Shown piece after piece: positions 6,195-45,941 of a DNA stretch of 46,166 nucleotides. Each line of letters begins with the position of its first letter. Positions within the stretch are counted from its first letter, which is position 1. The position numbers and the translations under genes are program-made. This DNA is from Pseudomonadota bacterium (GTDB lineage: Bacteria; Pseudomonadota; Alphaproteobacteria; SHVP01). The notes beneath the pieces are model-generated. The model was not told where the DNA came from. It saw only the letters and a list, made by a program, of their open reading frames with translations, and ran no database searches. The DNA is taken from the NCBI GenBank assembly GCA_027622715.1, contig JAQBYN010000024.1, forward strand, positions 1-46,166, written 5' to 3'.

Positions 6195-6980
6195 ATGCAT
6201 AGGGGCTACGTCGATACACCGGACGGGCAGATCCACTACCGAATGGCCGGCGAGTCCGGCCCGACGATCTTTTGCCTCCACGAATCGCCCGTGTCGTCGT
6301 GGGAGTTCGAGAGAACGCTGCCACTGTTTGGTGCCCGTTGCCGCGCCATCGCCTTCGATACTCCGGGCTATGGGCTGTCCGATCCGCCACCGGGACCGAT
6401 CGGCATTGCCGAATACGCGCGCCGGATGTTGCCCGCGATCGAACACTTTGCGCCCGGCGGCCGTTTTGCTTTCGCGACCGTTCATACCGGCACCTCCATT
6501 GCCCTGGAACTTATTACCGAGCATTTGGCTGAGCGAACAACGCACGCCGTTTTTTCGGGTGTGCCGATGATCAAGCCGGAGCAAGTCGCGGCCTTCACGG
6601 CACGAATTGGTGAGCCGACGATCGACGCGGCGGGCGACTTTCTCAAGGACATGTGGGCGACGCGCCGCAAGAACTGGGGCGAGGATACCGACCTTGAGAC
6701 GATCCACGCCGCCATCGCCCAGCACTTGTCGATCTATCCGCGCTTCCACTGGGCCTTTCAGGCAGTGTTCGCATACGACGCGGCGGCGGCGCTCAAAAAG
6801 ATTCGCTGCCCGCTCTACGTCATCAACGCTGAAGGCGACAGTCTCGCCCAGATTGACAAGGAAGCCGCTGCCATCGTCCCCGGCGCGCAATTCAAGCTTG
6901 TACCAGGCGTCGGCGGGCAACTGCCTTTCCGGGCGCCGGAGCTATACGCCCGCGAGGTGCTGAATTTCATCGGCGCGTAG
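6195..6980 (+). CDS. Alpha/beta hydrolase-fold protein with altered catalytic residues
   Basis: A 261-residue alpha/beta hydrolase-fold protein. The oxyanion region FCLHESPVSSWEF and the AFDTPGYGLSDPP segment are standard. At the nucleophile elbow, where most members have G-x-S-x-G, this protein has VHTGT, putting Thr98 at the nucleophile position. Near the C-terminus the usual G-x-G-H segment that carries the catalytic His reads GVGGQLPF, so no His is there. Substrate cannot be predicted, and the protein may not be a classical esterase. GGGAGGGAAG just before ATG 6195 is a strong ribosome site. It follows phoB by 57 bases and may or may not share its transcript. Confidence 0.85.
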   Translation: MHRGYVDTPDGQIHYRMAGESGPTIFCLHESPVSSWEFERTLPLFGARCRAIAFDTPGYGLSDPPPGPIGIAEYARRMLPAIEHFAPGGRFAFATVHTGTSIALELITEHLAERTTHAVFSGVPMIKPEQVAAFTARIGEPTIDAAGDFLKDMWATRRKNWGEDTDLETIHAAIAQHLSIYPRFHWAFQAVFAYDAAAALKKIRCPLYVINAEGDSLAQIDKEAAAIVPGAQFKLVPGVGGQLPFRAPELYAREVLNFIGA

Positions 6981-7104
6981 CGGACCAAAGACCCGCCTGT
7001 AGATTGTAGGGCCTGCACATAATTCGCGTATTAGTATTGAGACTCGCGCGATCCATTCGACTACACTCCCACCGGGGATCGTAATCGAACAAAACCGTTC
7101 CGAA

Positions 7105-8580
7105 ATGGCACAAAAAATACTCGTCGTCGAGGATGACCCGGCGCAGCTTCGCTATCTTGAGACCATCGTTGCCAACCTTGGTTACGAAACGCTCACGGCT
7201 GCGGATGGCGATGCGGCGGTCGATCTTCTAATCCGCCAAGACCGCAGCGGCGTCGATCTCGTCCTTCTCGATCTCGTTCTCCCAAAACTAGATGGATTTG
7301 GTGTGCTTCAGCGCGTCGAACCGATCCATCCCGACCTTCAGATCATCGTCTTGACGATGAGCGGTGGCGTGGGAACCGTGGTTCAAGCCATGCGCCACGG
7401 TGCGACGGACTTCTTGGTCAAGCCGGTAAGCCCGGAACGCATTCAAATCTCGATCGAAAACGCGCTGAAGATATCAACTCTTTCCGGCGAGCTTTCGCGC
7501 ATCACGCGCAAGGTCAACGGCGAGATGACGTTTGATGACTTGGTCGCCGTGGCGCCGCCAATGCGCAATGTTGTCGACTTGGCCAAACGCGCCGCCGCAT
7601 CGAACATCGCGGTGTTGCTTGAGGGCGAGAGTGGTGTCGGCAAGGAAATGATTGCCCGCGCCGTACAAGGCAGCAGCGAGCGTGCCGGCAAACCATTTGT
7701 AACGGTCAACTGCAGTGCGATCCCGGAAAACCTCGTCGAAAGCATCTTGTTTGGCCACGAGCGTGGATCGTTTACGGGGGCGCAACAAAAACACATCGGC
7801 AAGTTCCAAGAAGCCAACGGCGGGACGCTTTTCCTCGACGAGGTCGGTGAGCTGCCGCCGGATATCCAAGTCAAACTTCTGCGCGCCCTTCAAGACGGCG
7901 AAATTGACCCGGTCGGCAGCAAGCGACCCGTTAACGTCAATGTTCGCCTGATCTCGGCGACCAACCGCGACCTCCTTCAGCTCGTTGAAACCGAGCGGTT
8001 TCGCGAAGACCTCTACTACCGCCTCAACGTATTTCCAATTCGGGTGCCGCCGTTGCGCGAACGCCGCGAGGACATCCCGGCGCTGGTGCGCGCCTTCGTC
8101 CAACGCTTCGCCGCGTCCGAGGGAAAAGTCGTTGCCGGTGTCGATGATTCCGTGATGGATCTATTGATTTCCTACCCATGGCCGGGGAACGTGCGGCAAC
8201 TCGAGAATGCGGTGTTCCGCGCGGTGGTCTTAGCCGACGCCGAACACCTGCGCCTTGATGACTTTGGTCAAATCGCCGGGCGCTTGGCCCAGGCCGCTCA
8301 GCAGGGTGGCGTCGGCCGGCCCTTCGCCATTTCCGGCTATGGTGCGGGCGCAGGGGTATCGGTTGGCGCCGCCGCCGCCATGGCGATTACAGCGGTGGAC
8401 CAACAGGGTTCGATGCGGTCGCTGCGCGACATCGAGGACGACGCCATTCGCATTGCGCTGGATCGCTACAACGGGCAAATGTCAGAAGTCGCAAGGCGCC
8501 TCGGCATCGGGCGCTCAACCCTGTATCGAAAAATTCGCGACCTAGGGATCGATGTCGATCGGGCCCAAAGCGCCGGTTAA
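7105..8580 (+). CDS. Sigma-54-dependent response regulator (NtrC family)
   Basis: A 491-residue enhancer-binding activator of sigma-54 promoters. Receiver at 1-120 with D10/D11, phospho-acceptor D56, T84 and K106. AAA+ domain at about 145-375 with Walker A GESGVGK (174-180), the sigma-54 contact loop GSFTGA (221-226, usually GAFTGA), Walker B LFLDEVGEL and a WPGNVRQLEN segment. C-terminal Fis-type helix-turn-helix (MSEVARRLGIGRSTLYRKI). A Gly/Ala-rich linker of about 60 residues precedes the HTH. No kinase is adjacent; the convergent Hpt and receiver genes are likely partners. A TTGAGA/TACACT pair upstream is too widely spaced to call a promoter. Confidence 0.93.
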   Translation: MAQKILVVEDDPAQLRYLETIVANLGYETLTAADGDAAVDLLIRQDRSGVDLVLLDLVLPKLDGFGVLQRVEPIHPDLQIIVLTMSGGVGTVVQAMRHGATDFLVKPVSPERIQISIENALKISTLSGELSRITRKVNGEMTFDDLVAVAPPMRNVVDLAKRAAASNIAVLLEGESGVGKEMIARAVQGSSERAGKPFVTVNCSAIPENLVESILFGHERGSFTGAQQKHIGKFQEANGGTLFLDEVGELPPDIQVKLLRALQDGEIDPVGSKRPVNVNVRLISATNRDLLQLVETERFREDLYYRLNVFPIRVPPLRERREDIPALVRAFVQRFAASEGKVVAGVDDSVMDLLISYPWPGNVRQLENAVFRAVVLADAEHLRLDDFGQIAGRLAQAAQQGGVGRPFAISGYGAGAGVSVGAAAAMAITAVDQQGSMRSLRDIEDDAIRIALDRYNGQMSEVARRLGIGRSTLYRKIRDLGIDVDRAQSAG

Positions 8581-8876
8581 GCGTCGGCCAATGCCGCAAT
8601 AAGTGCGGCGTAAAGGGTCTCCGCCTCCGGTCGCGCGCGTTGCGCCTCCACAGAGCCGGCATCCCCGCTGATCGCGTGAAGATAATCGTTGAGTGCGCGT
8701 GCGGCGCCACCCAACGCAGAAAAACCAAAGGTTTCGCTGGCGCCGGCCAGACTGTGGACGAGCCTGTAAGCGACTTCCAAGTCTTCCGCATTCCAGTCGC
8801 CGTCGATGAGTGTGCGCCAAGCTAACGCCAGAGCGTGGCGTCGCTCGGGGAGCGAGGCGGCGAAATCGCGCCGCAT
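8577..8876 (-). CDS. Stand-alone Hpt (histidine phosphotransfer) domain protein
   Basis: A roughly 99-residue single-domain phosphorelay protein. The core AYRLVHSLAGASETFGF carries the conserved phospho-accepting His (H41 from this start), followed by two further helices ending ALIAALADA. The only upstream alternative start is TTG 8969, which would add 31 residues and overlap the receiver gene by 59 bases. I favour ATG 8876 because it gives a complete Hpt domain, though a helix upstream of it (STLEEALAE) looks like protein too. The stop overlaps the stop of the convergent sigma-54 regulator by 3-4 bases. It probably relays phosphate between an unlinked hybrid kinase and the receivers beside it. 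Confidence 0.78.
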   Translation of the reverse strand: MRRDFAASLPERRHALALAWRTLIDGDWNAEDLEVAYRLVHSLAGASETFGFSALGGAARALNDYLHAISGDAGSVEAQRARPEAETLYAALIAALADA

Positions 8877-8910
8877 TTCGGCGAGGGCTTCTTCGAGGGT
8901 CGAGGTTGGG

Positions 8911-9306
8911 CTAGGCAGCGTGTTTTTCCCAAATCTCGCGGACCGTTGTGCCGAGAGTACGGGGGTCAAAGGGCTTGGGTATAACGCTTGCCGCGCCCAG
9001 CGCGAGATATCGCGAAACCTCTGCCGACTGTACTTTCGCCGTCATGAACACGATCGGAACGGTCGCGGTTTCTGGTCGCTTGCGCATCTCCTCCATCGTC
9101 GTGAGCCCGTCCATACCAGGCATCATCACGTCGAGGAGCACGATTTCGGGTCTGAAGTCTCCGATGATGGTCAGGGCTTCAGCGCCGGATTCGCAAATTT
9201 TCACCTCAAACTCGCCGGAATACTCGAGGGCAAATCGGGCCACTTCTCGAATATCGGGTTCGTCTTCGACATAGAGAATGCGGCTAAGTTTTTTCTCGGC
9301 CATCAT
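8911..9306 (-). CDS. Single-domain response regulator (CheY-like)
   Basis: A 131-residue receiver without an output domain: acidic pair in YVEDEPD, phospho-acceptor D59 in LLDVMMPGMDG, MTAK switch, and K111 in IPKPFDP. The frame is open far upstream, but the sequence before ATG 9306 does not look like protein; AAGGG lies 12 bases before this ATG, and an adjacent ATG at 9303 is equivalent. It is followed by the Hpt gene on the same strand, so the two probably form an operon and one relay. Confidence 0.9.
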   Translation of the reverse strand: MMAEKKLSRILYVEDEPDIREVARFALEYSGEFEVKICESGAEALTIIGDFRPEIVLLDVMMPGMDGLTTMEEMRKRPETATVPIVFMTAKVQSAEVSRYLALGAASVIPKPFDPRTLGTTVREIWEKHAA

Positions 9307-29408: not shown

Positions 29409-31745
29409 CTACGCAGCTTTAGCGTCGTGAATCGCGCGCCACACCCGCTGTGGGGTCGCCGGCATTTCGATGTGTGTGACCCCGGTGGGGGCCAGCGCAT
29501 CCAAGACGGCGTTGATGACGGCCCCCGTCGCGCCGGTGGTGCCGGCCTCGCCGGCGCCTTTCAGGCCCAACGAGTTGGTGGTGCACGGCACGACGTTCAT
29601 ATCGATCTTGATCGACGGCAGGTTCAGCGCGCGCGGCATGCAGTAATCCATGAACGAGCCGGTGAGAAGTTGCCCCGATTCGGCGTCATAGATCGCATCC
29701 TCGTATAGCGCCTGGCCGATGCCTTGGACGATGCCGCCGTGAATTTGGCCGTGCACGATCATCGGGTTGAGCACGTGGCCGAAGTCGTCGACCACCGTGT
29801 AGTTCTCAATCACAATATCACCTGTATCGGGATCGACCTCGACCTCGACAATGTGACACCCGTTCGGAAAGCTCGACGCCTCGGATTTGTAGGTCGCATC
29901 TTCTTTGAGCCCCGGGGCCATGCCGTCGGGCAGGTTGGCCGGATCGTCCGCTGCCTTGGCCACGTCGCCCAGGCTAAGCGTGCGGTCGGTGCCGGCGATG
30001 GTGAAGGTGCCACCGTCGAATTCGATATCGGCCTCAGCCGCTTCCAGCATGTGCGACGCAATCTTGCGCGCCTTGTCGATCACTTTCTCGACGCCGGCCA
30101 GCACCGCGCCGCCCCCGCTGTAGCCCGAGCGCGATCCACCAGCGCCGCCGCCTTGCGCCAAAATATCGGAATCGCCCTGGTGAACCGTGATGCGGTCATA
30201 GTCCGTCCCCAGTTTGTCGGCGACGATTTGCGCGAAGGTCGTGGCGTGGGCCTGTCCCTGGGTTAGCGATCCCGAATAGGCCATGACCGATCCGTCGGCG
30301 TTCACCTCGATCCGCGCGGTTTCGGGGACGCCGCCCGCGGTCGCTTCGATATAGACCGACATGCCGATGCCCCGCAGCCTGCCGCGTTTGGCCGCTTCGG
30401 CCCGCCGCACCTCGATGCCATCCCAGTCGGCGGCCTTCAGACAGTCGTCCAGGTTTTTGACAAAGTCACCCGAATCGTAGGTCATCCCGGTTGGCCCGCT
30501 ATAGGGCATCTGCGCGGCCGCGATCAGGTTGCGGCGCCGGATTTCGACCGGGCTCAGCTTCATCGCGTGCGCCGCCAGATCGACCAGCCGCTCGATGACA
30601 TAGCTCGCTTCTGGGCGGCCCGCGCCGCGATAAGCGTCGGTAAAGACTTTGTTGGTAATGCTGACCTCGACCTCGGCATAAACCAGTGGCACGCGGTAGA
30701 CCCCGGGCAGCATGCGCACGCTGCCGGCCGACAAAATCATCGGTCCAAAATTGGACGCATAGGCCCCCATCGAGCCCACCGAATGCACCCGTACCGCCAA
30801 GAAATGCCCGTCGCTATCCAGCGCCAGTTCTGCGTCGACCACCAGGTCGCGCCCCTGGGTATCGCTCAGGAACGCCTCGCTGCGGTCCGAATACCATTTC
30901 ACCGCGCGACCCAAGCGTTGTGCGGCGAGCATCACCAACGGTTGCTCCGGATAGGGCATGCCCTTCATCCCGAACGAGCCGCCGACTTCGGGGCAGGTCA
31001 CATGAATGCGGTTTTCCTCGACGCCCAACATCTGCGCGCAAATCGCCCGATTGCGGTACACGCTTTGGGTATTGGTGTGCAGCGTATAGCGGCCGCTCGC
31101 CGCATCGTACTCGCCGATGCAGCCGCGCGGTTCCATCGATGCGGCGATGATGCGCTGGTTGACGTGTTTGAAACGTACCGTCTTATGCGCCGCCGTAAAT
31201 GCGGCCTCGCTCGCCGCCGCATCGCCCATGGTGAACAAAAAGGCGTCGTTGCCGTCGGTCTCGTCCGCATAGATGACCGGCGCGCCCGGCGCCAGCGCCG
31301 CGGCCGTATCGGTCACGCTCGGCAAAACCTCGTAGTCGACAAGAACGGCTTCGGCGGCGTCTTTGGCCTGGGTGCGGGTCTCGGCGATGACGAATGCAAC
31401 GGGGTCGCCGACATGGCGCACATGCGTCCGCACCAGGACATGATGGGTCGGAAAGAACCGTTTCGATCCGTTGCGCCGTTTGAACTCGAACATGGCATCG
31501 ACGGCGCAGGGCAGGGGGCCCACGTCTTCAACGTCGGCGCCGGTGTAAATAGCGAGGACGCCCGGCATCGCCAGGGCGCTACCGGTCTCAATCGACAAGA
31601 CCTTGGCGTTGGCGTGAGGTGAACGCAGGACATACGCGTGGGCTTGGCCGGCAACGTTGATGTCGTCGATATAGTGGCCTTTGCCGATCAACAGCGTGTC
31701 GTCTTCTTTGCGTTTGACCGACTGACCGATCCCGAATTCGCCCAT
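29409..31745 (-). CDS. Xanthine dehydrogenase/CoxL family molybdenum hydroxylase large subunit (paralog B)
   Basis: A 778-residue second copy. It opens MGEFGIGQSVKRKEDDTLLIGKGHYIDD and has GGSFGMKGMPYPEQ, TDAYRGAGRPEASYVIERLVD (form-II loop), the cofactor-binding GQAHATTFAQIVADKLGTDYDRITVHQGDSD segment and catalytic GLKGAGEAGTTGAT. It matches its two neighbours along the full length, with differences around the substrate channel. GAGG is nine bases before ATG 31745. About 100 bases separate it from paralog A and 72 from paralog C, so all three probably form one transcript or were duplicated as complete gene units. Confidence 0.93.
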   Translation of the reverse strand: MGEFGIGQSVKRKEDDTLLIGKGHYIDDINVAGQAHAYVLRSPHANAKVLSIETGSALAMPGVLAIYTGADVEDVGPLPCAVDAMFEFKRRNGSKRFFPTHHVLVRTHVRHVGDPVAFVIAETRTQAKDAAEAVLVDYEVLPSVTDTAAALAPGAPVIYADETDGNDAFLFTMGDAAASEAAFTAAHKTVRFKHVNQRIIAASMEPRGCIGEYDAASGRYTLHTNTQSVYRNRAICAQMLGVEENRIHVTCPEVGGSFGMKGMPYPEQPLVMLAAQRLGRAVKWYSDRSEAFLSDTQGRDLVVDAELALDSDGHFLAVRVHSVGSMGAYASNFGPMILSAGSVRMLPGVYRVPLVYAEVEVSITNKVFTDAYRGAGRPEASYVIERLVDLAAHAMKLSPVEIRRRNLIAAAQMPYSGPTGMTYDSGDFVKNLDDCLKAADWDGIEVRRAEAAKRGRLRGIGMSVYIEATAGGVPETARIEVNADGSVMAYSGSLTQGQAHATTFAQIVADKLGTDYDRITVHQGDSDILAQGGGAGGSRSGYSGGGAVLAGVEKVIDKARKIASHMLEAAEADIEFDGGTFTIAGTDRTLSLGDVAKAADDPANLPDGMAPGLKEDATYKSEASSFPNGCHIVEVEVDPDTGDIVIENYTVVDDFGHVLNPMIVHGQIHGGIVQGIGQALYEDAIYDAESGQLLTGSFMDYCMPRALNLPSIKIDMNVVPCTTNSLGLKGAGEAGTTGATGAVINAVLDALAPTGVTHIEMPATPQRVWRAIHDAKAA

Positions 31746-31817: not shown

Positions 31818-34142
31818 TTAGGCGGCTTTGGCGCCGTCCATCAAGCGCCACAGGCGTTCCGGCGTGGCCGGCATTTCGACATGTCGGATGCCCAAATCCT
31901 TGAGCGCATCCACCAGCGCGTTGGTCACGCAGCCCAGTGCACCAACGGTCCCGGCTTCACCGGCCCCCTTGATGCCCATCGGGTTGGTTTTGCACAGCAC
32001 CTCGTTGAACCCGATCTTGAACGACGGGAAGTTGTCGGCGCGCGGCATCGCGTAATCCATGTATGACCCCGTCACCAGCTGGCCCGAGTCGGCATCGTAG
32101 ATGCAATGCTCGAGCAGCACTTGGCCGACGCCCTGGACAATGCCGCCGTGAACTTGGCCCGCGACGAGCAGCGGGTTGATGACCTTGCCGAAGTCGTCGA
32201 TGACTACATAGTTCAAGATCGTCACGTTGCCGGTGTCGCGGTCGACCTCCAATTCGCAGATGTGGCACCCGTTGGGGTAGGTGCCGGAATTGACGTCCGA
32301 ACCGGCGCGGGTGTCGAGCCCGGCGTCGACGCCGTCGGGCAGATTGGCCTGGTCCTTGGCTGCCGTTGCAACCTCGCCAATGGTCAACCGTCGGTCGGTC
32401 CCGACAATGGAGAACACACCGTCACCGAACTCAATGTCGGACTCGGCGGCTTCCAGCATATGCGCGGCAATCTTCTTGCCCTTTTCGATGATCTGCTCGG
32501 AGGCATTCTTGAGCGCTGCGGCGCCCAGCATCATCGACTTAGACCCGCCTGTGCCGCCACCGGTTTTCACTCGGTCGGTATCGCCTTGCACAACCGTGAT
32601 TTTGTCGAATGGCAGGCCCAGCATTTCCTCCAACACCTGCGAATACGATGTCGCGTGGCCCTGGCCGTTGGTCAGCGTGCCGATCAGCACCGTGACGCTG
32701 CCGTCGTCCTCGAAGATCAGTTCGACGTTTTCGTTGGGCCCACCCGCTGCGGCCTCGACATAGCACGCCATGCCGATGCCGCGCAGCTTGCCGGCCTTTG
32801 CCGATCCGGCGCGGCGCGATTCGAAGCCGTTCCAATCGGCCATCTTCATCGCGGCGTCCATATTGGCCGCGAACTCACCCGAATCGTAGTTCGGCCCCAG
32901 CGGCGCCGCGAACGGCAGCTTGCTCGAGGGGATTAGGTTGCGCCGGCGGATCTCGGCCGGGTCGATGCCCATATCGTACCCTGCGCTATCGACCAATCGT
33001 TCGATGATGTGCGATGCCTCAGGCCGACCGGCGCCGCGATAGGCATCGATCGACACCGTATTGGTGAACACACCGATCACGTTCACATAGGCCGCCGGAA
33101 TGTCGTACAGCCCGGTCAGCAAGCCGGTGCCCGCCATCGTCGCCACCATCGGCGCGAAGTTCGACAAATACGCACCCATGGCCGAAATATTCTCGACCTT
33201 TATCGCGAGGAACTTGCCGTCTTTGTCCATCGCCAGTTCGGCATGGGTGACATGATCGCGTCCCTGCGTGTCGGAAACGAATGCTTCGGTGCGCTCGCTG
33301 GTCCATTTGACGGGACGACCGACTTTCTTAGCGACCCACGGCATCAGGCACTGTTCAGGATAGACGAACACTTTCATGCCGAACCCGCCACCGACATCGG
33401 GCGATATCACCCGCACTTGGTCGGCCTCTGCGCCTAACGCGCCGGAGACAATATCGCGCATCATGTGAACGTGCTGGCAGGGCGTGTGCAGCGTATAGCG
33501 TTTGGTCTTGGTGTCGTATTGGCCCAGCGCGCCGCGCGGCTCCATCGAGGCCACGACCACGCGGTTGTTGGTGAGGTCGATCTTGGTGATATGCGCTGCA
33601 CTGGCAAAGGCCGCATCGACCGCCGCGCGGTCGCCCTTCTCCCAATCGAAGACTCGGTTGCCGGGCGCGTCATCCCAGACCAGCGCCTTGCTCGTCAGCG
33701 CGCCCGCCGTATCGGTCACTGAGGGCAGGATGTCATAGTCGACCTCAACAAGATCGGCGGCGTCTTTGGCCTGCTTGGCGGTCTCGGCGACCACGACGGC
33801 GACCGCGTCACCGACGGTTCGCACGCGGTCAAGGGCCAACAAATCGTGTGGTGGTTGCGCCATCTTCGAACCATCGCGTGAGGTTAGAACGGCAAGGCAC
33901 GGGATGCCGCCGATTTTGTCAGCCTTCAGGTCGGCCGCCGTGAAAATGCCCAGAACTCCCGGCGCGGCCTTGGCCGCCGCCGAATCAATGCCGTTGATCT
34001 TGGCATGGGCATGCGGTGAGCGGACGAAATGGGCAAAGGCCTGCCCGTCGAACGTCAAATCGTCGAGATAGCGTCCGCCACCCGTCAGCAGCCGGTTGTC
34101 TTCTTTGCGACGGACCGCTTGGCCCACACCGAATTGACCCAT
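31818..34142 (-). CDS. Xanthine dehydrogenase/CoxL family molybdenum hydroxylase large subunit (paralog C)
   Basis: A 774-residue large subunit and first of the tandem set in transcription order. It opens MGQFGVGQAVRRKEDNRLLTGGGRYLDD and contains GGGFGMKVFVYPEQCL, IDAYRGAGRPEASHIIERLVD (form-II loop), NGQGHATSYSQVLEEMLGLPFDKITVVQGDTD and the catalytic GIKGAGEAGTVGALGCV. Most members of this family are cytoplasmic heterotrimers or heterodimers that hydroxylate aldehydes, purines or N-heterocycles. AAAGG precedes ATG 34142. A candidate promoter with a palindrome lies at 34196-34230. Confidence 0.93.
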   Translation of the reverse strand: MGQFGVGQAVRRKEDNRLLTGGGRYLDDLTFDGQAFAHFVRSPHAHAKINGIDSAAAKAAPGVLGIFTAADLKADKIGGIPCLAVLTSRDGSKMAQPPHDLLALDRVRTVGDAVAVVVAETAKQAKDAADLVEVDYDILPSVTDTAGALTSKALVWDDAPGNRVFDWEKGDRAAVDAAFASAAHITKIDLTNNRVVVASMEPRGALGQYDTKTKRYTLHTPCQHVHMMRDIVSGALGAEADQVRVISPDVGGGFGMKVFVYPEQCLMPWVAKKVGRPVKWTSERTEAFVSDTQGRDHVTHAELAMDKDGKFLAIKVENISAMGAYLSNFAPMVATMAGTGLLTGLYDIPAAYVNVIGVFTNTVSIDAYRGAGRPEASHIIERLVDSAGYDMGIDPAEIRRRNLIPSSKLPFAAPLGPNYDSGEFAANMDAAMKMADWNGFESRRAGSAKAGKLRGIGMACYVEAAAGGPNENVELIFEDDGSVTVLIGTLTNGQGHATSYSQVLEEMLGLPFDKITVVQGDTDRVKTGGGTGGSKSMMLGAAALKNASEQIIEKGKKIAAHMLEAAESDIEFGDGVFSIVGTDRRLTIGEVATAAKDQANLPDGVDAGLDTRAGSDVNSGTYPNGCHICELEVDRDTGNVTILNYVVIDDFGKVINPLLVAGQVHGGIVQGVGQVLLEHCIYDADSGQLVTGSYMDYAMPRADNFPSFKIGFNEVLCKTNPMGIKGAGEAGTVGALGCVTNALVDALKDLGIRHVEMPATPERLWRLMDGAKAA

Positions 34143-37674: not shown

Positions 37675-38664
37675 TCAGCCGCCGGTGACGCTCATATGCC
37701 GCTCGACTGCGGGCGCGGTGTGGCGTCGGTCGATGAAAAAGTCATGTCCCTTGGGCTTGCGCGTGATCGCTTCATCGATGGCGGCGTCCAGCGCGTCGTC
37801 ACTGTCGCCGGCCCGCAGCGCGGTGCGCAGGTCCGCCGAATCGCCCTGACCCAAGCACATATACAACGTCCCCGTGCAGGTCAGCCGCACGCGGTTGCAC
37901 GATTCGCAAAAGTTGTGGGTCAGCGGCGTGATGAAGCCAATCCGGCCATCTGTTTCTTTTACCCGTACGTACCGCGCCGGCCCGCCGGTCTGGTAGTCAA
38001 TATCGTCGAGGTGCCACCGTTTGTTGAGGTCGGCGCGCGCCACCGAAAGCGGCAAATAGTCCGCCGAGCGGTCACCGTCTATGTCACCCATCGGCATCGT
38101 CTCGATAAACGTCAGGTCGAACCCTTGATCGCCGCACCAGGCGATAAGCCGGTCGAACTCGCCGTCGTTGATCTTGTTGAGCGCCACCGTGTTGATCTTA
38201 ATCGCTAGGCCCGCGCGTTTGGCTGCGGCGATCCCGCGCATCACTTGGTCGAAGTCACCCCAGCGGGTAATGCGCTTGAATACGTCGGGGTCGAGCGAAT
38301 CAAGCGATATGTTGACCCGCCGCACGCCCGCGGCATACAGCGCATCGGCGTAGCGGTCGAGCTGGCTACCGTTGGTCGTTAGCGTCAAATCTTCGAGCGC
38401 ACCAGTGGCCAAATGCCGACCCAAGCTTTGAAACAACGTCATGATGTCTTTGCGCACCAATGGCTCGCCACCGGTCAGTCGCAACTTATTGACGCCCTTG
38501 CGTACGAACGCCGAACACAGCCGGTCAAGTTCCTCCAGCGACAGCACGTCGCGCTTGGGCAGGAACGTCATGTGCTCAGACATGCAATACACGCAACGAA
38601 AATCGCACCGGTCCGTCACTGACACACGCAGGTAGGTAATTTCGCGGCCGAAGGGGTCGATCAT
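37675..38664 (-). CDS. moaA: GTP 3',8-cyclase MoaA (molybdenum cofactor step 1)
   Basis: Radical-SAM enzyme that rearranges GTP in the first step of molybdopterin synthesis. The N-terminal cluster motif C-x3-C-x2-C is at residues 20, 24 and 27 (RCDFRCVYC); the second cluster is [15 protein letters not shown]; the protein ends in the Gly-Gly tail that is essential in MoaA. Length 329 is normal. ATG 38664 starts the canonical [13 protein letters not shown]; a longer frame is not conserved. It diverges from fdhD across a ModE-type palindrome. No moaC, moaE or moeA gene is nearby. Confidence 0.96.
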
Positions 38665-38685: not shown

Positions 38686-38721
38686 TTGAGCGTTATATAT
38701 GGCAGTATATAACCCTCTCAA
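38686..38721. promoter_or_regulatory. Overlapping divergent promoters for moaA and fdhD
   Basis: Plus strand (fdhD): TTGAGC (38686-38691), 16 bases, TATAAC (38708-38713). Minus strand (moaA): TTGAGA (38721-38716), 16 bases, TATATA (38699-38694). The two -10 elements are formed by the opposite arms of the palindrome at 38692-38713, so anything bound there would be expected to stop both. Confidence 0.55.
38692..38713. promoter_or_regulatory. ModE-type palindrome (molybdate-response operator)
   Basis: GTTATATA (38692-38699), TGGCAG, TATATAAC (38706-38713): perfect 8-bp arms with a 6-base centre. This matches the published ModE core of TATATA-N6-TATATA with flanking AC/GT. It sits centrally between moaA and fdhD and over their predicted -10 elements. 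A ModE-like HTH protein is encoded at 40246 in the fdhD operon. Confidence 0.8.
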
Positions 38722-38766
38722 GGGCGGGCGTGTGGTTTTCTGCGCGCCCCGCGAAGATGTGACGCG

Positions 38767-39630
38767 ATGCGCGAATTTGAGGTAGGCCCTAACCCGCACG
38801 ACCCCCGGCTTACCCGGCGGGTGACGGGGCGTGACGAAACCGGAGCCGAGGTTGAAACCGCGGTCACCGTTGAGCGTCCCTTGACGGTCTATCTCAACGG
38901 CCAGGAAATCGTCACCATGATGACGATCGGCGACCATCCGAAGTGGCTCGCGGTCGGCTATTTGTTGAACCAGAACATGCTGCGGGCCGACGACCGGATC
39001 GACGCAATCGACTACGACGAGGAACTAGAGCTTGTCGTCGTGCGCACCCAGCGCCCGACCGACTACGAAGCCAAGCTAAAGAAGAAGACCCTGACCTCCG
39101 GCTGCGCCCAGGGCACGGCGTTCGGCGATCTGATGGAAACCTTCGAAGATGTGACGCTGGCGCCCGACGCCGTTCTGCGCACCGCATGGCTCGCGATGCT
39201 GCTCAAGAAAATCAACACCCAACCCAGCCTGTATTTAGAGGCGGGTGCGATCCACGGCTGCGTCTTGGCGCGCGAACAAACCCCGTTGCTCTATCTCGAA
39301 GATGTCGGGCGCCACAACGCGGTCGACAAGATCATGGGCTACATGTTTCTCAATAGCGTCACGCCGGAAGACAAGATTTTCTACACGACCGGTCGGCTGA
39401 CTTCAGAAATGGTCATCAAGTGCGTCAATATGCGCATTCCGATTCTGGTCTCACGGTCGGGCTTTACGGCCTGGGGCGTGGATTTGGCGCGCCAAGCGAA
39501 CTTAACCTTGGTCGGCCGCGCTCGCGGTCGTCGCTTCGTCGTGCTGGCCGGGCATGAACGCATGATCTACGACGCGCCTACGGGCGCCGAAGAAGAGCCC
39601 GAATCCGACCGGCGCAAGGGCGGTCGGTGA
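38767..39630 (+). CDS. fdhD: Formate dehydrogenase accessory sulfurtransferase FdhD
   Basis: Carries sulfur from a cysteine desulfurase to the molybdenum cofactor, needed for an active formate dehydrogenase. The 287-residue product has [10 protein letters not shown]-like sequence ([18 protein letters not shown]), the YLLNQNML segment, FTTGRL-like [15 protein letters not shown] and [12 protein letters not shown]. The sulfur-carrying Cys is in [11 protein letters not shown], but the second Cys of the enterobacterial C-x2-C is Gly here. Some formate dehydrogenase clusters name this gene fdsC. It leads an operon with mobA and the ModE-like gene and precedes the convergent formate dehydrogenase genes. 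Confidence 0.94.
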
Positions 39631-40253
39631 AGGCGCATCGTCACGTAGTCGGCGTTTTGCTGGCTGGCGGGCAGGCGCGGCGCATGGGCGGCGGCGATAA
39701 ATGTTTGCAACGACTGGGCGGCGAAACGCTGTTGGCGCGCGCCATCGCGCGTGCCCGCCCGCAAGTTGATTCGCTCATTCTCAACGCCAACGGCGATCCC
39801 GCGCGATTTGGCGCTTATGGCATTCCGGTGGTACCCGACGTGATCGACGGGTTCGCGGGCCCGCTGGCGGGCATCTTGACCGCGATGGAGTGGGCGGCGC
39901 AAAACGCGACCGACCATGAAACCGTGGTCTCGTTCCCGACCGACGCCCCGTTCTTCCCAGACGATCTTGTGGATACCATGCTCGAGGCCCGTCGCCAGGC
40001 CGGGGCACTCTTGGCGTGCGCGGCGTCGCGCGGTCGCACCCATCCGGTTTTCGGCGTGTGGCCGGTTAATCTGCGCGCCGACCTGCGGCACGCGCTCGAA
40101 CAAGGCGAACGAAAGATCGACCGGTGGACCGATCAGTATCCCATCGTGACCGTTGAGTTTTCCGGCGTCGACGTCGATCCGTTCTTCAACGCCAACACGC
40201 TCGAAGACTTGGCCCAGGCCGAACGCTTGTTGCAGGGGCCGACGCGTGAGTAA
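39627..40253 (+). CDS. mobA: Molybdenum cofactor guanylyltransferase MobA
   Basis: Adds GMP to molybdopterin to give the MGD cofactor used by formate dehydrogenase. The 208-residue nucleotidyltransferase has the signature GVLLAGGQARRMGGGDKCLQRLGG, then VPDVIDGFAGPLAGILTAM and VVSFPTDAPFFPDDLV. The start is GTG 39627, overlapping the fdhD stop (GTGA). The CoxL-type enzymes in this window would instead need the MCD form made by MocA, which is not found here. Confidence 0.95.
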   Translation: MKAHRHVVGVLLAGGQARRMGGGDKCLQRLGGETLLARAIARARPQVDSLILNANGDPARFGAYGIPVVPDVIDGFAGPLAGILTAMEWAAQNATDHETVVSFPTDAPFFPDDLVDTMLEARRQAGALLACAASRGRTHPVFGVWPVNLRADLRHALEQGERKIDRWTDQYPIVTVEFSGVDVDPFFNANTLEDLAQAERLLQGPTRE

Positions 40254-40611
40254 GCGGTCTCATGCGGCAGCGCCGCAGCTGCGGGTGCTGCTCGGGTCGG
40301 CAACCGCAATGGGGCCGGGCAAGGCAGCGCTCATCGACACAATCGCGCGCACCGGCTCGATCTCGGCTGCGGCCCGCGACATGGGTATGTCCTATCGGCG
40401 CGCTTGGGATTTAGTGGAGACCATGAACCAATGTTTTCGTCACGCGCTGGTCGAAACCGCGACCGGCGGACGAGGCGGCGGTGGCGCGCAGGTTACTGAC
40501 TTTGGTCGGGAGGTGGTGCGCCGCTACCGGGTCATGGAGGGCAAGGCCGCGCGCAGTGTCGCGGCCGAAATGAGCGCGCTCGAAAAGATGATGCGCAAAC
40601 CGGCGAGCTAG
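40246..40611 (+). CDS. ModE N-terminal-type winged-helix regulator lacking the Mop domain
   Basis: A 121-residue DNA-binding protein matching only the N-terminal half of ModE: LLGSATAMGPGKAALIDTIARTGSISAAARDMGMSYRRAWDLVETMNQCF (winged helix), LVETATGGRGGGGAQVTDFGREVVRRYRVME (wing and dimer helix). E. coli ModE goes on to two Mop/TOBE molybdate-binding domains; here the protein stops after the dimer helix. The start is GTG 40246, overlapping mobA by 8 bases; a frame open from 40153 runs inside mobA. It is the obvious candidate to bind the palindrome at 38692. How it would sense molybdate is unclear. Confidence 0.88.
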   Translation: MSKRSHAAAPQLRVLLGSATAMGPGKAALIDTIARTGSISAAARDMGMSYRRAWDLVETMNQCFRHALVETATGGRGGGGAQVTDFGREVVRRYRVMEGKAARSVAAEMSALEKMMRKPAS

Positions 40612-40651: not shown

Positions 40652-40855
40652 TTAGAACCGGCGCATGCCGACGCGGCGCTCGTTTTCCTGAAACAGTTCC
40701 TCGACCGCGGCCAGGACATCCTGCCAAATACGTTGGCCGGCTGTATCACCCCGCCGCTCGAACCGACCAATGGCGTTGCGCGCCACCGAAGCAGCCTCGC
40801 CGCCATGAACATCGATCAGTTGGTCGGCAGTTGCGAACGTCAATTGATCGCCCAT
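40652..40855 (-). CDS. Small uncharacterised protein upstream-convergent to the FDH region
   Basis: A 67-residue soluble protein. The helix pair EAASVARNAIGRFERRGDTAGQRIWQDVLAAVEELF resembles a small alphaproteobacterial family of unknown role. GGGGAGGGT lies four bases before ATG 40855, a very strong ribosome site, which supports expression. It lies between the ModE-like gene (convergent) and the formate dehydrogenase alpha gene (same strand, 159 bases upstream). The position is that of a delta subunit (FdsD), but I see no similarity to FdsD and do not call it that. Confidence 0.68.
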   Translation of the reverse strand: MGDQLTFATADQLIDVHGGEAASVARNAIGRFERRGDTAGQRIWQDVLAAVEELFQENERRVGMRRF

Positions 40856-41014: not shown

Positions 41015-43750
41015 TCAGTCGGCCAGGATCGGCTCAACATTTGCCGCGCAAAACTTGAACTCCGGGATTTTCCCGAACGGGTCAAGCGCGGGATTGGTCA
41101 ACAGGTTGGCTGCAGCCTCGGCGTAGCAAAAGGGCATGAACACCATGCCTTCGGGCACCCCGGAATCGATCCGCACCGCCAATTCGATGGCGCCGCGCCG
41201 GGTGGCCAGCCGCACCCGCTGCCCGCCCTCAAGGCCCAAGGCCTCAATGTCGTTGGGCGCGAGATGGGCATGCGCCTCGGGCTCCAGGTCGTCCAGTACG
41301 TCGGCGCGCCGGGTCATCGCCCCGGTATGCCAATGTTCCAGCAGCCGCCCCGTACTCAGCACGAACGGATAGTCGGGATCAGTCGGCTCGTCGGGCGGAA
41401 TGATTGCCGCCGGGACGAACCGCCCGCGCTTGGTCGGCGTCGGAAACCCGTCGCCGAATATGACTTCGTGCCCGGCGTGTTGCTCGTCGTCGCACGGATA
41501 CGTCACCGCGCTCTCGCGCTCCAAGCGTTCCCAGGTGATCCCTTTGATTGAAGGCATGCAGGCGCGCATTTCCGCAAACACGTCGCGCGGATGCGGGTAG
41601 TCCCAGTCAAGCCCCAACCGCCGCGCCACCTCTTGGATGATCCACAAATCCTGTCGCGCATCACCGGGCAGGGGTAGCGCGTGGCGGCCCAACTGCACCC
41701 GGCGGTCGGTGTTGGTAAACGTGCCGTCCTTCTCCGGAAACGCCGAGGCGGGCAAGATGACGTCGGCATAGCACGCGGTCTCAGTTAGGAAGATATCCTG
41801 CACCACCAAATGCTGCAGCTTGGCCAGGGCCGCGCGGGTGTGGTTCAGGTTCGGGTCCGACATCGCCGGGTTTTCGCCCATGATGTACATGCCCTCGATC
41901 ACCCCGTCATGGATCGCGTCGGTGATTTCCACCACCGTCAGCCCTATCTTGGGGTCGAGTTTGGCGTCCCACAACGACTCGAAACGCGCACGCACCGTGT
42001 CGTCCTCGACGTGCGTGTAGTCGGGGTAGAACATCGGGATCAGGCCGACGTCGGATGCGCCTTGCACATTGTTCTGGCCGCGCAACGGATGCAGCCCGGT
42101 ACCCGGTCGCCCGATCTGGCCGCACATCAGCGCCAGCGAAATGAGACAACGCGCGTTGTCGGTGCCGTGAATATGCTGGCTGATCCCCATGCCCCAAAAA
42201 ATCATCGCCGAGCGCGCCCGCCCATAGATGCGGGCGATCTCGCGTAACGTGTCGGGTGGTACGCCGCAGACGTCGGCCATCGCTTCCGGCGAAAACGCTT
42301 TCAGATGCTGGCGCATCGCGGCAAAGCCGTCGGTGTAGCCCGCGATGTAATTATGATCGACCAAATCCTCGTCAACGATCACATGCATGATCGCGTTGAG
42401 CAGGGCGACGTCGGTACCGGGCTTGAATTGCACCATATGTGTCGCGTGCCGCCCGAGCGCTTCGCCGCGCGGATCGAGCACGATCAGTTTGGTGCCGTTC
42501 TTGACCGCGTTCTTGAAGAACGTCGCCGCGACAGGATGATTGACCGAGGTGTTGGAGCCGATCACGACGATCACCTCGGTGTTCTTCACCTCGGCGAACG
42601 GTGCCGTCACCGCGCCGGAACCGATCGTCTCCATCAGTGCCGCCACCGACGAGGCGTGGCATAGCCGCGTGCAGTGATCGACGTTGTTGGTGCCGAACCC
42701 GGCGCGCACCATTTTCTGAAACAAATAGGCTTCTTCGTTGGAACCCTTGGCGCTGCCGAACCCGGCAAGGCCTGCACCGCCCTTGGTGTCGCGAATATCG
42801 CGCAAGCCTTTGGCGGCAACCGCCAGCGCTTCTTCCCACGTCGCCTCGCGGAAGTGGCTCAACGGGTTGGACGGATCGACATCAGGGTGGAGCGATTTTG
42901 CCACGCCATCTTTACGAATAAGCGGCGTCTTGAGCCGCTGCGGGTGGCTGACATAGTCGAACCCAAAGCGGCCCTTAACGCATAGCCGCCCTTGGTTGGC
43001 CGGACCGTCGCGCCCCGAAACGTAGACCAGCGCATCGTCCTTGACGTGATAGGTCAACTGGCAGCCGACACCGCAATAGGGGCACACGCTGTCGACCTGT
43101 CGGTCGATGGTCTCAAGTAGCGCGTCTTTCGCCGGCGCCAGGGCGCCGGTCGGGCAGGCCTGGACGCATTCGCCGCAGCCCACGCAGGTGCTGGCGCCCA
43201 TTGGGTCACCCACGTCGAAAACAATTTGGCTGTGCGACCCGCGGTGGGCCATGGCGATAACGTCGTTGACCTGGACCTCGCGGCAGGCCCGCACACACAG
43301 CCCGCAATGGATGCAGGCATCCAGGCGCACCGTCATCGCTGGGTGCGATGGATCGGGATTGGGCCGCAATCCTGCCGGATAACGGCTGGTTGTGGTGCCG
43401 CAAGCGTCGGCCATGCGCCAAAACAGGCTATCTTTATCGTAGGCCTGATCGCGCGGCGGTTGGTCGGCGACCAGCAGTTCCATCACGCCGCGCCGCGCCG
43501 TTGCGGCACGCGCGCTCGCGCTGTGCACCGTCATGCCGTCGGTCGGTTTGCGGATGCACGCCGCCGCCAGCGTGCGCTCGCCGTCAATCTCGACCATACA
43601 GGCGCGGCAATTGCCGTCGGCGCGGTAGCCCGGCGCCGGCGAATAACACAGGTGTGGGATCGCCACGCCTTCGCGCGCCGCGACCTGCCAAATGGTTTCA
43701 CCGTCGGCGGCCTCGACGTCGCGGCCGTCCAGCGTAAAAGTAATGCTCAT
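41015..43750 (-). CDS. fdsA: NAD-dependent formate dehydrogenase, alpha (catalytic) subunit
   Basis: A 911-residue Mo/W-bis-MGD enzyme that oxidises formate to CO2. In order: an N-terminal 2Fe-2S ferredoxin domain (HLCYSPAPGYRADGNCRAC, later ACIR), two 4Fe-4S ferredoxin motifs (CIHCGLCVRAC and CVGCGECVQAC), the proximal 4Fe-4S motif CPYCGVGCQL, and the catalytic domain with Cys in TRLCHASSVAALMETIG where E. coli FdhF has selenocysteine. The MGD-binding C-terminal domain ends near PILAD. Electrons pass to the fused gamma-beta subunit, whose stop overlaps this start by 4 bases. It is cytoplasmic with no signal peptide. Tungsten cannot be excluded as the metal. Confidence 0.94.
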   Translation of the reverse strand: MSITFTLDGRDVEAADGETIWQVAAREGVAIPHLCYSPAPGYRADGNCRACMVEIDGERTLAAACIRKPTDGMTVHSASARAATARRGVMELLVADQPPRDQAYDKDSLFWRMADACGTTTSRYPAGLRPNPDPSHPAMTVRLDACIHCGLCVRACREVQVNDVIAMAHRGSHSQIVFDVGDPMGASTCVGCGECVQACPTGALAPAKDALLETIDRQVDSVCPYCGVGCQLTYHVKDDALVYVSGRDGPANQGRLCVKGRFGFDYVSHPQRLKTPLIRKDGVAKSLHPDVDPSNPLSHFREATWEEALAVAAKGLRDIRDTKGGAGLAGFGSAKGSNEEAYLFQKMVRAGFGTNNVDHCTRLCHASSVAALMETIGSGAVTAPFAEVKNTEVIVVIGSNTSVNHPVAATFFKNAVKNGTKLIVLDPRGEALGRHATHMVQFKPGTDVALLNAIMHVIVDEDLVDHNYIAGYTDGFAAMRQHLKAFSPEAMADVCGVPPDTLREIARIYGRARSAMIFWGMGISQHIHGTDNARCLISLALMCGQIGRPGTGLHPLRGQNNVQGASDVGLIPMFYPDYTHVEDDTVRARFESLWDAKLDPKIGLTVVEITDAIHDGVIEGMYIMGENPAMSDPNLNHTRAALAKLQHLVVQDIFLTETACYADVILPASAFPEKDGTFTNTDRRVQLGRHALPLPGDARQDLWIIQEVARRLGLDWDYPHPRDVFAEMRACMPSIKGITWERLERESAVTYPCDDEQHAGHEVIFGDGFPTPTKRGRFVPAAIIPPDEPTDPDYPFVLSTGRLLEHWHTGAMTRRADVLDDLEPEAHAHLAPNDIEALGLEGGQRVRLATRRGAIELAVRIDSGVPEGMVFMPFCYAEAAANLLTNPALDPFGKIPEFKFCAANVEPILAD

Positions 43751-45426
43751 CGCACGGCCTCCGGGAAATACCGCATCAACGTGTCGAACACGTTGGGTGC
43801 TGCTTGGCCTAACCCGCAGATCGAGGCATCGCGCATGGTCTGCCCAAGGTCACGCAGCAACGCGGCATCCCACGGCCCATCTTGCATCAGGGTTACGGCT
43901 TTCTCGGTGCCGACCCGGCACGGGGTGCACTGGCCGCAACTTTCGTCGGCAAAAAAGCGCATCAGGTTCAACGCCGCGCCGCGTACGTCGTCCTGGTCGG
44001 ATAAGATGATCACCGCGGCGGACCCAATGAACGCGCCGTGGGGTTCCAGCGTGCCGAAATCCAGCGGCACGTCGCCGAGGCTGGCGGGCAGGATGCCGCC
44101 CGACGCGCCGCCCGGCAGATAGGCGGCAAAGGCATGCCCGTCCTGCATCCCGCCACAATACTGGTCGATCAGATCGCGCACCGTGATACCGGCGGGCGCG
44201 AGTCTGACCCCGGGCTCGCGCACCCGACCCGACACCGAATAGCTACGCGGACCCTTGCACCCGTTCGTGCCCTGGTCGGCGAACCAATCCGCGCCGTTCG
44301 CCAAAATGTGCGGGATCCAGTACAGCGTCTCGACGTTGTGGGCCAGCGTCGGGCGGCCGAACAGACCAACCTGCGCCGGGAACGGCGGGCGGTGCCGGGG
44401 CAGGGGCCGATTGCCCTCCATGCTTTCCAGCATCGCCGACTCTTCGCCGCAAATATAAGCGCCGGCGCCGCGCCGCAATGTAATTCGCGGCAGCGCCCGG
44501 CCCGACGCTTCCAACGCGGCAATCTCTTTGCGCAGCGTCTCGTGCACGTGCGGGTATTCATCGCGTAAGTAAAAATAGATGTCCTCGGCCTCGATCGCCC
44601 AAGCAGCAATCAGCGCGCCCTCGAGAACGCGGCGCGGTTCGGTCTCCAAATAGTGCCGGTCTTTGAAGGTACCGGGTTCGCCCTCGTCGGCGTTGACCGC
44701 CAGCACCCGCGGTTTGGGCTCGGCCAACACGAACTGCCATTTGCGCGCGGCGGGAAACCCCGCGCCGCCAAAGCCGCGCAACCCGGCCGCGCCCACCGTG
44801 TCCATGACCTGCGCGGCGCGCCGCTGCCCCCCAGCACACGCGTCGAATTCGGCATAGGCGGAATCGACGGCTGCTGTCCGGACCGGTGCCCGGGCAGCGG
44901 TATCGCCACTATCAATCGCTGCCCGCACCGCCAACGCCAATGCGCCGCCGATGTGGTTGCGGCCGACCTCGGCAACCGGTGCGGTATCGCAACGGCCCAT
45001 ACACGGTGCGCGCACGACACGAACCCCGGCCCCAGCCGCGCCCGCCACATCGGCGAATAGCTGCTCGGCCCCGGCCATCGCGCACGACAAGCTGTCGCAA
45101 ATGCGCACGGTCAGCGGCGGCGGCGCCTCTTCGTCCTCGCGGTGCACGTCGAAATGCGCATAAAAACTCGCGACCTCATAAATCTCCGCCATCGACAGGC
45201 GCATGTGATGCGCCAGCGCCGCGATATGCTGCGCCGAAATGCCGTGATGCCGGTCTTGGATGCGGTGCAGATACTCCAACAACAAATGCCGGTTAGGCGT
45301 CTCGCCCGCAAGCACCGCCGCCACATCGCGCAGCGACTGCGCGCTTGGCTGACGCCCGCGCTCGGTCCGCCGGCCCTTGCGCCGGCCTTTACCGGGATGC
45401 GGTGCGGCTTTGGTTTCGGCCGTCAT
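43747..45426 (-). CDS. Formate dehydrogenase fused gamma-beta subunit (FdsG-FdsB / NuoE-NuoF fusion)
   Basis: A 559-residue flavoprotein that passes electrons from the alpha subunit to NAD. Residues about 25-165 are NuoE/FdsG-like with 2Fe-2S ligands in CDSLSCAMAG and PCMGRCDTAP. Residues about 205-555 are NuoF/FdsB-like: NADH/FMN site GLRGFGGAGFPAARKW and NADEGEPGTFKDR, GAGAYICGEESAMLES, and the 4Fe-4S motif CGQCTPCRVGT with a further C in SICGLGQ. Two-subunit fusions of this kind are known, for example the beta subunit of Methylobacterium FDH1. ATG 45426 forms an ATGA overlap with DUF3553; a longer frame to 45615 only runs over that gene. Confidence 0.92.
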   Translation of the reverse strand: MTAETKAAPHPGKGRRKGRRTERGRQPSAQSLRDVAAVLAGETPNRHLLLEYLHRIQDRHHGISAQHIAALAHHMRLSMAEIYEVASFYAHFDVHREDEEAPPPLTVRICDSLSCAMAGAEQLFADVAGAAGAGVRVVRAPCMGRCDTAPVAEVGRNHIGGALALAVRAAIDSGDTAARAPVRTAAVDSAYAEFDACAGGQRRAAQVMDTVGAAGLRGFGGAGFPAARKWQFVLAEPKPRVLAVNADEGEPGTFKDRHYLETEPRRVLEGALIAAWAIEAEDIYFYLRDEYPHVHETLRKEIAALEASGRALPRITLRRGAGAYICGEESAMLESMEGNRPLPRHRPPFPAQVGLFGRPTLAHNVETLYWIPHILANGADWFADQGTNGCKGPRSYSVSGRVREPGVRLAPAGITVRDLIDQYCGGMQDGHAFAAYLPGGASGGILPASLGDVPLDFGTLEPHGAFIGSAAVIILSDQDDVRGAALNLMRFFADESCGQCTPCRVGTEKAVTLMQDGPWDAALLRDLGQTMRDASICGLGQAAPNVFDTLMRYFPEAVR

Positions 45427-45605
45427 GCCAAATCGTCCTCGTCCAGCACCGTCAGGGTAATCACCTCGATATTGATCAGCTGTTTGCCGGCATGTTGAAA
45501 ATTGACGGTCACCCGCATGCCCACCGCCGACTGAACTTGGCCGATGCCCCAGTCGGGTCGGTCGGGATGTCTGACATAGGCGCCCGGTTCCAACAGTAGC
45601 GTCAC
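45423..45605 (-). CDS. DUF3553 small protein
   Basis: A 60-residue protein with the DUF3553 pattern LEPGAYVRHPDRPDWGIGQVQSAVGMRVTVNFQHAGKQLIN, a small beta-barrel-like fold also seen in CarD/Mfd-type interaction modules. The start is GTG 45605 with GGAAGTGGA close upstream. The stop overlaps the fused formate dehydrogenase gene by 4 bases, so it is the first gene of the operon. Function is unknown; the tight coupling to formate dehydrogenase is unusual. Confidence 0.85.
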   Translation of the reverse strand: MTLLLEPGAYVRHPDRPDWGIGQVQSAVGMRVTVNFQHAGKQLINIEVITLTVLDEDDLA

Positions 45606-45941
45606 AACGGTCCACTTCCGGCGTTCTTCATAGGTTATTCTAACAGACCAGGGATTGAATTAGGTCAATCGGGGAACGCCATGGACGACATCGACTTCAG
45701 TCCAATGACATTCAGGATGGAAGAGTGTCGCGGTGGCAGCACTATTTCTCTCGGCAAGGGCTTGCGCGAACTGTTCGAGCCAGCGTGTGGCTTGAGCGCT
45801 TACCGGTTCAACGTCCGTGGGTTCTTTCATCTCTTGGTCCAATCGCTGATTTTACGCTGTTATCTAGACGTCTCCTCAGACCCCGTTGTTATCGTGCGAC
45901 AACGCGCGCTAGGCTAACCCGCGCCACATTGGAGGTTTGCC
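45606..45941. other. 336-base gap with a gene remnant and divergent control regions
   Basis: No intact gene. It carries a short coding remnant (45660-45842 minus), a small GTTA-TTC-TAAC dyad at 45634-45644 in front of DUF3553, and the upstream region of the HD-domain gene that ends in GGAGG at 45930-45935. I find no convincing promoter for either gene. Confidence 0.5.
45660..45842 (-). pseudogene. Remnant of an NTF2-like domain at the head of a flavin-dependent oxidoreductase
   Basis: A 60-residue open frame. ATRWLEQFAQALAERNSAATATLFHPECHWTEVDVV matches the opening helix and first strand of the NTF2-like module that precedes some FAD-dependent monooxygenases (usually ...LFaddcHWRDLLAFTW). 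After HW the sequence loses the pattern and stops within 15 residues, and no continuation is found in other frames before the DUF3553 gene. I read it as the 5' end of a deleted gene; a chance similarity is possible. Confidence 0.45.

What the first reader, a model, noticed from the sequence alone, without database searches (positions are those of the whole stretch)
38692..40611. ModE-type operator paired with a ModE-like protein that has no molybdate-binding domain
Seen: a perfect GTTATATA-N6-TATATAAC palindrome covers both divergent promoters of moaA and fdhD-mobA, and the last gene of the fdhD operon encodes only the ModE winged helix and dimer helix (121 residues). Known: ModE senses molybdate through C-terminal Mop/TOBE domains and its sites have a TATATA-N6-TATATA core. 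Inference: this is a self-regulated molybdenum-cofactor circuit in which sensing is done by a separate partner, by a different ligand, or not at all. The target set is also unusual: cofactor synthesis plus FdhD, not a molybdate transporter.
Basis: partly seen in the sequence, partly recalled or inferred. Interest (0 to 1): 0.78.

Follow-up and report, generated by a model that had tools for sequence, protein, structure and literature searches.

The report
Lone-domain ModE regulator with classic operator
This bacterium appears to control its molybdenum uptake and cofactor genes with a short form of the well-known regulator ModE that lacks the molybdate-sensing half; the short form turns out to be the usual one in its class and is already described elsewhere, but how it senses molybdenum is still unknown.

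Summary
A perfect GTTATATA-N6-TATATAAC palindrome (38692-38713) lies between moaA and fdhD-mobA-modE, and the last gene encodes a 121-residue ModE with only the DNA-binding domain. It is not unusual. (1) Of 85 strong ModE-domain hits followed across the class, 82 are lone domains and 3 full-length. Full-length ModEs form a separate clade (support 0.996), and lone ones carry a GPGK motif (155/163 against 0/28). (3) Across ModE loci, GYTATAT-N8-ATATARC occurs 26 times, with 0-1 at other spacings; 23 of 28 sites lie just upstream of modA/B, moaA or fdhD. (4) Lone ModE is published for Desulfovibrio and for Campylobacter jejuni, where it is next to fdhD and represses molybdate and tungstate transport; an Agrobacterium lone ModE has a solved structure. 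The genome has no full-length ModE and no Mop-only protein; its single TOBE domain is in ModC. How molybdate is sensed remains open. New member of a known kind.

The parts
38692..38713 (.). ModE-type operator GTTATATA-N6-TATATAAC between moaA and fdhD-mobA-modE
   Evidence: Exact palindrome, 0.01 expected at <=3 mismatches in shuffles; matches 15 of the 16 specified bases of the CGNTATATA-N6-TATATANCG core of the E. coli ModE consensus quoted in PMC545781; conserved at the same place in the same-genus genomes G001 and G002 and in family member G007
40246..40611 (+). modE, 121 aa, DNA-binding domain only (GPGK-type lone ModE)
   Evidence: TIGR00637 100.9 bits; nearest solved relatives 2IJL (lone ModE of Agrobacterium, E 6e-23) and E. 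coli ModE 1B9M/1O7L; AlphaFold model mean pLDDT 90.5, winged helix plus C-terminal helices 85-104 and 106-116
39627..40253 (+). mobA, molybdenum cofactor guanylyltransferase
   Evidence: TIGR02665, 209 bits, over cut-off
38767..39630 (+). fdhD, formate dehydrogenase accessory sulfurtransferase; first gene of the operon
   Evidence: TIGR00129, 142.9 bits, over cut-off
37675..38664 (-). moaA, GTP 3',8-cyclase, divergent from fdhD
   Evidence: TIGR02666, 366.5 bits, over cut-off
41015..43750 (-). Formate dehydrogenase alpha subunit: the molybdoenzyme that FdhD would serve; neighbour, no operator found before its operon
   Evidence: TIGR01591, 744.8 bits; no further site in the window
43747..45615 (-). 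NuoE/NuoF-like fused subunit of the same formate dehydrogenase
   Evidence: NuoF-type and NuoE-type matches

Best explanation
This is a molybdenum homeostasis regulon run by a lone-domain ModE. The 121-residue winged-helix protein most likely binds as a dimer to TATATA-N6-TATATA operators. One operator lies between moaA and fdhD-mobA-modE, so it would control cofactor synthesis and ModE itself; the other abuts modA and would control modABC. Binding over these start regions would repress molybdate uptake, cofactor synthesis and its own production. Shown here: operator sequence, position and conservation; the lone-domain subfamily; the absence of a full-length ModE or Mop-only protein in the genome. 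Inferred: binding, dimerisation, repression and autoregulation. How the signal enters is not shown. I think an indirect signal (a partner protein or a Mo-dependent state of the cell) somewhat more likely (about 0.5) than repression set only by the amount of ModE (about 0.3) or direct ligand binding to the lone domain (about 0.2).
For: Operator exact and beyond chance. The second-best site in the whole genome is before modA. Both sites are conserved in sister species G001, and the moaA/fdhD site also in G002 and G007. Across 165 ModE loci (1.98 Mb; all but three lone), GYTATAT-N8-ATATARC occurs 26 times, with 0-1 at other spacings; in those loci plus the window and two modA regions, 23 of 28 sites lie within 300 bp upstream of modA/B, moaA or fdhD, which cover 3% of bases. 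The wing ATGGRGGGGA is nearly the ATGGKGGGGA of E. coli ModE, which fits the shared operator. It is the only ModE over cut-off in the genome. Precedent: C. jejuni ModE without a metal-binding domain is reported to repress modABC and the tungstate transporter (PMC7011364 citing Taveirne 2009); its gene is numbered next to fdhD and is needed for formate dehydrogenase activity (PMC11237541).
Against: No binding or expression data. ModE can also activate: it is described as an activator of the moa operon (PMC11980592), so the sign at moaA and fdhD could differ. No consensus promoter was recognised at the site. Several relatives with fdhD-mobA-modE (L181, L214, L220) have no such site in the 8 kb read. 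In C. jejuni the modE mutant loses formate dehydrogenase activity, which simple derepression does not explain.
Confidence: 0.78

Rival explanations
1. Split sensor: the lone ModE is the DNA-binding half, and the C-terminal TOBE domain of ModC, the only such domain in the genome, is the molybdate-binding half; ModE would be held or released by the transporter according to molybdate.
For: ModC carries the only TOBE domain and modABC is itself a target. About half of the lone modE genes (42 of 82) have mod genes within 4 kb. PMC7011364 reports the proposal that C. [quoted passage not shown]
Against: No interaction data. Three lone-ModE genomes (G339, G152, G264) show no TOBE match at all, and others have several.
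Confidence: 0.15
2. Ligand-independent homeostat: the lone ModE binds its operators whether or not molybdate is present; its amount, set by repression of its own operon, caps modABC and cofactor gene expression.
For: modE is the last gene of an operon headed by the operator. Among 163 lone ModEs, strongly conserved positions are in the helix-turn-helix, the wing and the start of the C-terminal helix; no conserved Cys or His site is seen. No dedicated Mop protein is present.
Against: Repression of a high-affinity uptake system without a metal signal would be unusual physiology. Many lone modE genes lie beside mod genes rather than in an evidently self-regulated operon.
Confidence: 0.25
3. Direct sensing by the lone domain: the nearly invariant GPGK at the start of the first helix of the DNA-binding domain binds molybdate, tungstate or a cofactor intermediate.
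For: GPGK is in 155 of 163 lone ModEs and in 0 of 28 full-length ones; a Gly-rich, Lys-bearing helix start is a plausible anion site (inference).
Against: E. coli ModE has an Arg at the equivalent Lys position in the alignment, so the residue may simply contact the DNA backbone. No ligand data were found here.
Confidence: 0.1
4. The palindrome is a chance AT-rich promoter element and the ModE relative acts elsewhere.
For: Weaker matches elsewhere in the genome are at background level: 15 sites with up to 3 mismatches against 23 for the reversed control pattern.
Against: Both sites with at most one mismatch precede Mo genes and are conserved; strong enrichment across ModE loci at exactly this spacing.
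Confidence: 0.03

Closest known systems
Lone ModE of Campylobacter jejuni (Cj1507c; Taveirne et al. 2009, read through PMC7011364 and PMC11237541)
   Same: ModE DNA-binding protein without a metal-binding domain; gene numbered next to fdhD (cj1508c); reported to repress modABC
   Different: C. jejuni ModE is also reported to control a tungstate transporter; its operator and sequence were not compared here; the window's modE is in an fdhD-mobA-modE operon with moaA opposite
Single DNA-binding-domain ModE of two Desulfovibrio species and D. psychrophila (Rodionov et al. 2004, PMC545781)
   Same: Lone ModE DNA-binding domain in genomes with modABC; sensing mechanism described as not clear
   Different: The predicted Desulfovibrio operator is CGGTCACG-N14-CGTGACCG, not TATATA-N6-TATATA, and an integrase-Mop fusion gene is in the modABC cluster; in this genome no Mop domain exists outside ModC
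Agrobacterium tumefaciens lone ModE, PDB 2IJL (135 aa)
   Same: Closest solved sequence relative (E 6e-23) and fold match (TM 0.81 by target length)
   Different: Its 'molybdenum-binding' name was not traced to a binding experiment here; it has G-H-G-K instead of GPGK
Full-length E. coli ModE (PDB 1B9M, 1O7L)
   Same: Same winged-helix domain and nearly the same wing sequence; same operator core; same kinds of target (mod, moa)
   Different: E. coli ModE has two C-terminal molybdate-binding TOBE domains; the window protein has none and falls outside the full-length clade

Membership tests
ModE family, DNA-binding domain (TIGR00637) | Match to the ModE_repress profile over its curated cut-off | tested here: met
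   100.9 bits against 98.5
ModE family, DNA-binding domain (TIGR00637) | ModE winged-helix fold | tested here: met
   Best fold matches are 1B9M, 2IJL, 1B9N and 1O7L; model mean pLDDT 90.5
Full-length ModE (PRK10676 equivalog) | Two C-terminal TOBE/Mop molybdate-binding domains | tested here: not met
   No TOBE match and only 121 aa; PRK10676 76.4 against a cut-off of 369 bits
Full-length ModE (PRK10676 equivalog) | Molybdate-dependent DNA binding | not testable with these tools
   Needs protein and DNA in vitro
Lone-domain (GPGK-type) ModE | ModE DNA-binding domain with a short C-terminal tail and no TOBE | tested here: met
   82 of 85 class-wide hits share it
Lone-domain (GPGK-type) ModE | GPGK motif, and separation from the full-length clade | tested here: met
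   GPGK at residues 23-26; 155/163 lone against 0/28 full-length; full-length sequences form one clade, support 0.996
ModE regulon | TATATA-N6-TATATA operator before molybdate transport genes | tested here: met
   GTTATATAGGACCGTATATTAC ends 5 bases before modA; similar site in G001
ModE regulon | Operator bound by the ModE protein of the same genome | not testable with these tools
   Needs gel shift or footprinting
Moco riboswitch control (alternative) | Moco RNA motif before moaA | tested here: not met
   No Rfam match in the window

The most novel reading that the evidence does not exclude
The GPGK-type lone ModEs are an old, separate branch of ModE that reads molybdenum status through another protein, perhaps the TOBE domain of ModC, making the ModE system a split sensor in most of the class and linking transport activity directly to the repressor.
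Probability: 0.15. Interest if true: 0.55.

Novelty: new member of a known kind. Interest (0 to 1): 0.27.

Why it matters
It shows that the one-piece, molybdate-binding ModE of textbooks is a minority form in this class: most sampled members use a protein with no sensor, on the same operator. How such a regulator reads molybdenum was called not clear for Desulfovibrio in 2004 and was attributed to a hypothetical complex in C. jejuni. This genome offers a clean case (one lone ModE, no full-length ModE, no Mop protein, two operators, one TOBE domain in ModC) in which that question could be tested.

Tried and rejected
Moco riboswitch before moaA: no Rfam match. Full-length ModE elsewhere in the genome: none over cut-off; the two weak hits lie in frames of 342 and 402 aa and also match the general LysR-type HTH_1 profile strongly. 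Mop-only proteins: none; the only TOBE is in ModC. Third genomic site (two mismatches) before hemE: sequence read, AT-rich and less symmetric, treated as background. Sigma-70 promoter consensus at the operator: none at threshold. The weak site G001:C2:120147 is not near a full modABC set and was not pursued. Conserved Cys or His as a redox or metal site in lone ModE: Cys63 is present in only a third of sequences. Studholme and Pau 2003 is not held, and Taveirne 2009 is cited only through papers that describe it.

Full report
Observation. The palindrome GTTATATATGGCAGTATATAAC is at 38692-38713 exactly as written, the only match with up to three mismatches in the window against 0.01 expected in shuffles. 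It lies between moaA (minus strand, start 38664) and fdhD (plus strand, start 38767). fdhD, mobA and modE overlap end to start (38767-39630, 39627-40253, 40246-40611), so modE is very likely transcribed from the region that holds the operator. The families are secure: MoaA, FdhD and MobA are over their NCBIfam cut-offs, and the 121-residue protein matches the ModE_repress domain at 100.9 against 98.5 bits with no TOBE match.

The genome. The window lies on contig C21 of a 3.15-Mb, 86-contig genome (completeness 100). It has one protein over the ModE cut-off, this one; the two next hits are weak and lie in frames of 342 and 402 aa. The genome has one TOBE domain, at the end of ModC on contig C2. 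The whole genome holds two sites with at most one mismatch to TTATATA-N6-TATATAA: the one in the window, and GTTATATAGGACCGTATATTAC on C2, which ends five bases before the modA start codon of a modABC operon (L023 6657-6678; modA 6684-7466, modB 7470-8165, modC 8162-9244). The sister species G001 has a perfect site between moaA and fdhD and GTTATATATGGCCGTATATTAC just before its own modA. G002 and G007 also have perfect sites between moaA and fdhD.

How common lone ModE is. A search of 337 genomes of the class gave about 100 strong ModE-domain hits. For 85 loci from the class and the order the reading frame was followed to its stop: 82 end within 49 residues of the profile match and 3 continue for 154-162 residues with tandem SARN-type TOBE domains. 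The 80 closest relatives found among GTDB genomes, mostly alpha-, beta- and gammaproteobacteria, are all lone too. Lone ModEs carry GPGK at the start of the first domain helix in 155 of 163 cases, against 0 of 28 full-length ModEs taken from the phylum-wide search. In a FastTree of 188 DNA-binding domains the 31 full-length sequences form one clade with support 0.996 and no lone sequence inside. So the lone protein is not a recently truncated ModE but belongs outside the full-length clade. Some genomes in the phylum-wide search hold both a frame long enough for full-length ModE and a short one (for example G509).

Neighbourhoods and operators. Of the 82 lone loci, 42 have mod genes within 4 kb and 11 have fdhD with mobA. 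Across 165 loci (1.98 Mb, three of them full-length), GYTATAT-N8-ATATARC occurs 26 times; the same half-sites at eight other spacings occur 0 or 1 time each. In the set that adds the window and the two modA regions, and allows one more base at one position, 23 of 28 sites lie within 300 bp upstream of modA/B, moaA or fdhD, regions that make up 3% of the bases (binomial p about 1e-30, which ignores relatedness). Not every fdhD-linked locus has the site: L181, L214 and L220 do not.

Protein. The nearest solved sequences are 2IJL, a 135-residue lone ModE from Agrobacterium (E 6e-23), and E. coli ModE. The AlphaFold model has mean pLDDT 90.5, with a winged helix and C-terminal helices at 85-104 and 106-116; its best fold matches are the same ModE structures. 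The wing ATGGRGGGGA is almost that of E. coli ModE, which fits the same operator. In 163 lone ModEs the strongly conserved positions are in the helix-turn-helix, the wing and the start of the C-terminal helix.

Literature. Rodionov and colleagues reported single DNA-binding-domain ModEs in Desulfovibrio in 2004 and called the sensing mechanism not clear (PMC545781). PMC7011364 reports, citing Taveirne 2009, that C. [quoted passage not shown] PMC11237541 gives adjacent gene numbers for modE (cj1507c) and fdhD (cj1508c) and shows that a modE mutant loses formate dehydrogenase activity, restored by complementation. The window is thus a further instance of a known arrangement.

Mechanism. I infer a dimeric repressor acting on both operators, with negative feedback on its own operon. 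Signal input is open. A separate Mop-only partner is not encoded here; among 78 lone-ModE genomes, 33 have at most one TOBE match and three have none, so a Mop partner is unlikely to be general. ModC's TOBE domain is the one candidate molybdate-binding domain of this kind in the genome; the link to ModE is speculation.

Limits. No binding, expression or interaction data. The class genomes were drawn evenly, but the loci read were the higher-scoring hits. TOBE counts depend on one Pfam profile. Promoters at the operator were not recognised by the consensus scan.

Noticed in passing
window 40652-40855 (minus): A 67-residue ORF (MGDQLTFATADQLIDVHGGEAASVARNAIGRFERRGDTAGQRIWQDVLAAVEELFQENERRVGMRRF) lies between modE and the formate dehydrogenase alpha gene on the strand of the latter; it may be a small formate-dehydrogenase-associated protein.
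   Followed up: no
window 29409-31745 and 31818-34142 (minus): Two tandem large-subunit genes of the xanthine/CO dehydrogenase type, below the cut-off of every named equivalog, so their substrates are unknown; both look like molybdoenzymes whose cofactor the regulated genes would supply.
   Followed up: partly
window 43747-45615 (minus): The formate dehydrogenase diaphorase subunits are fused: a NuoE-like part followed by a NuoF-like part in one 622-residue protein.
   Followed up: partly
L023 6657-6684 (G000 contig C2): The modA operator ends five bases before the start codon, leaving little room for a normal leader; the modA transcript may be leaderless or start inside the operator.
   Followed up: no
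G509, G562, G505, G472, G467: Some genomes of the phylum appear to hold both a full-length-sized ModE frame and a short one, so the two forms may share work there.
   Followed up: no
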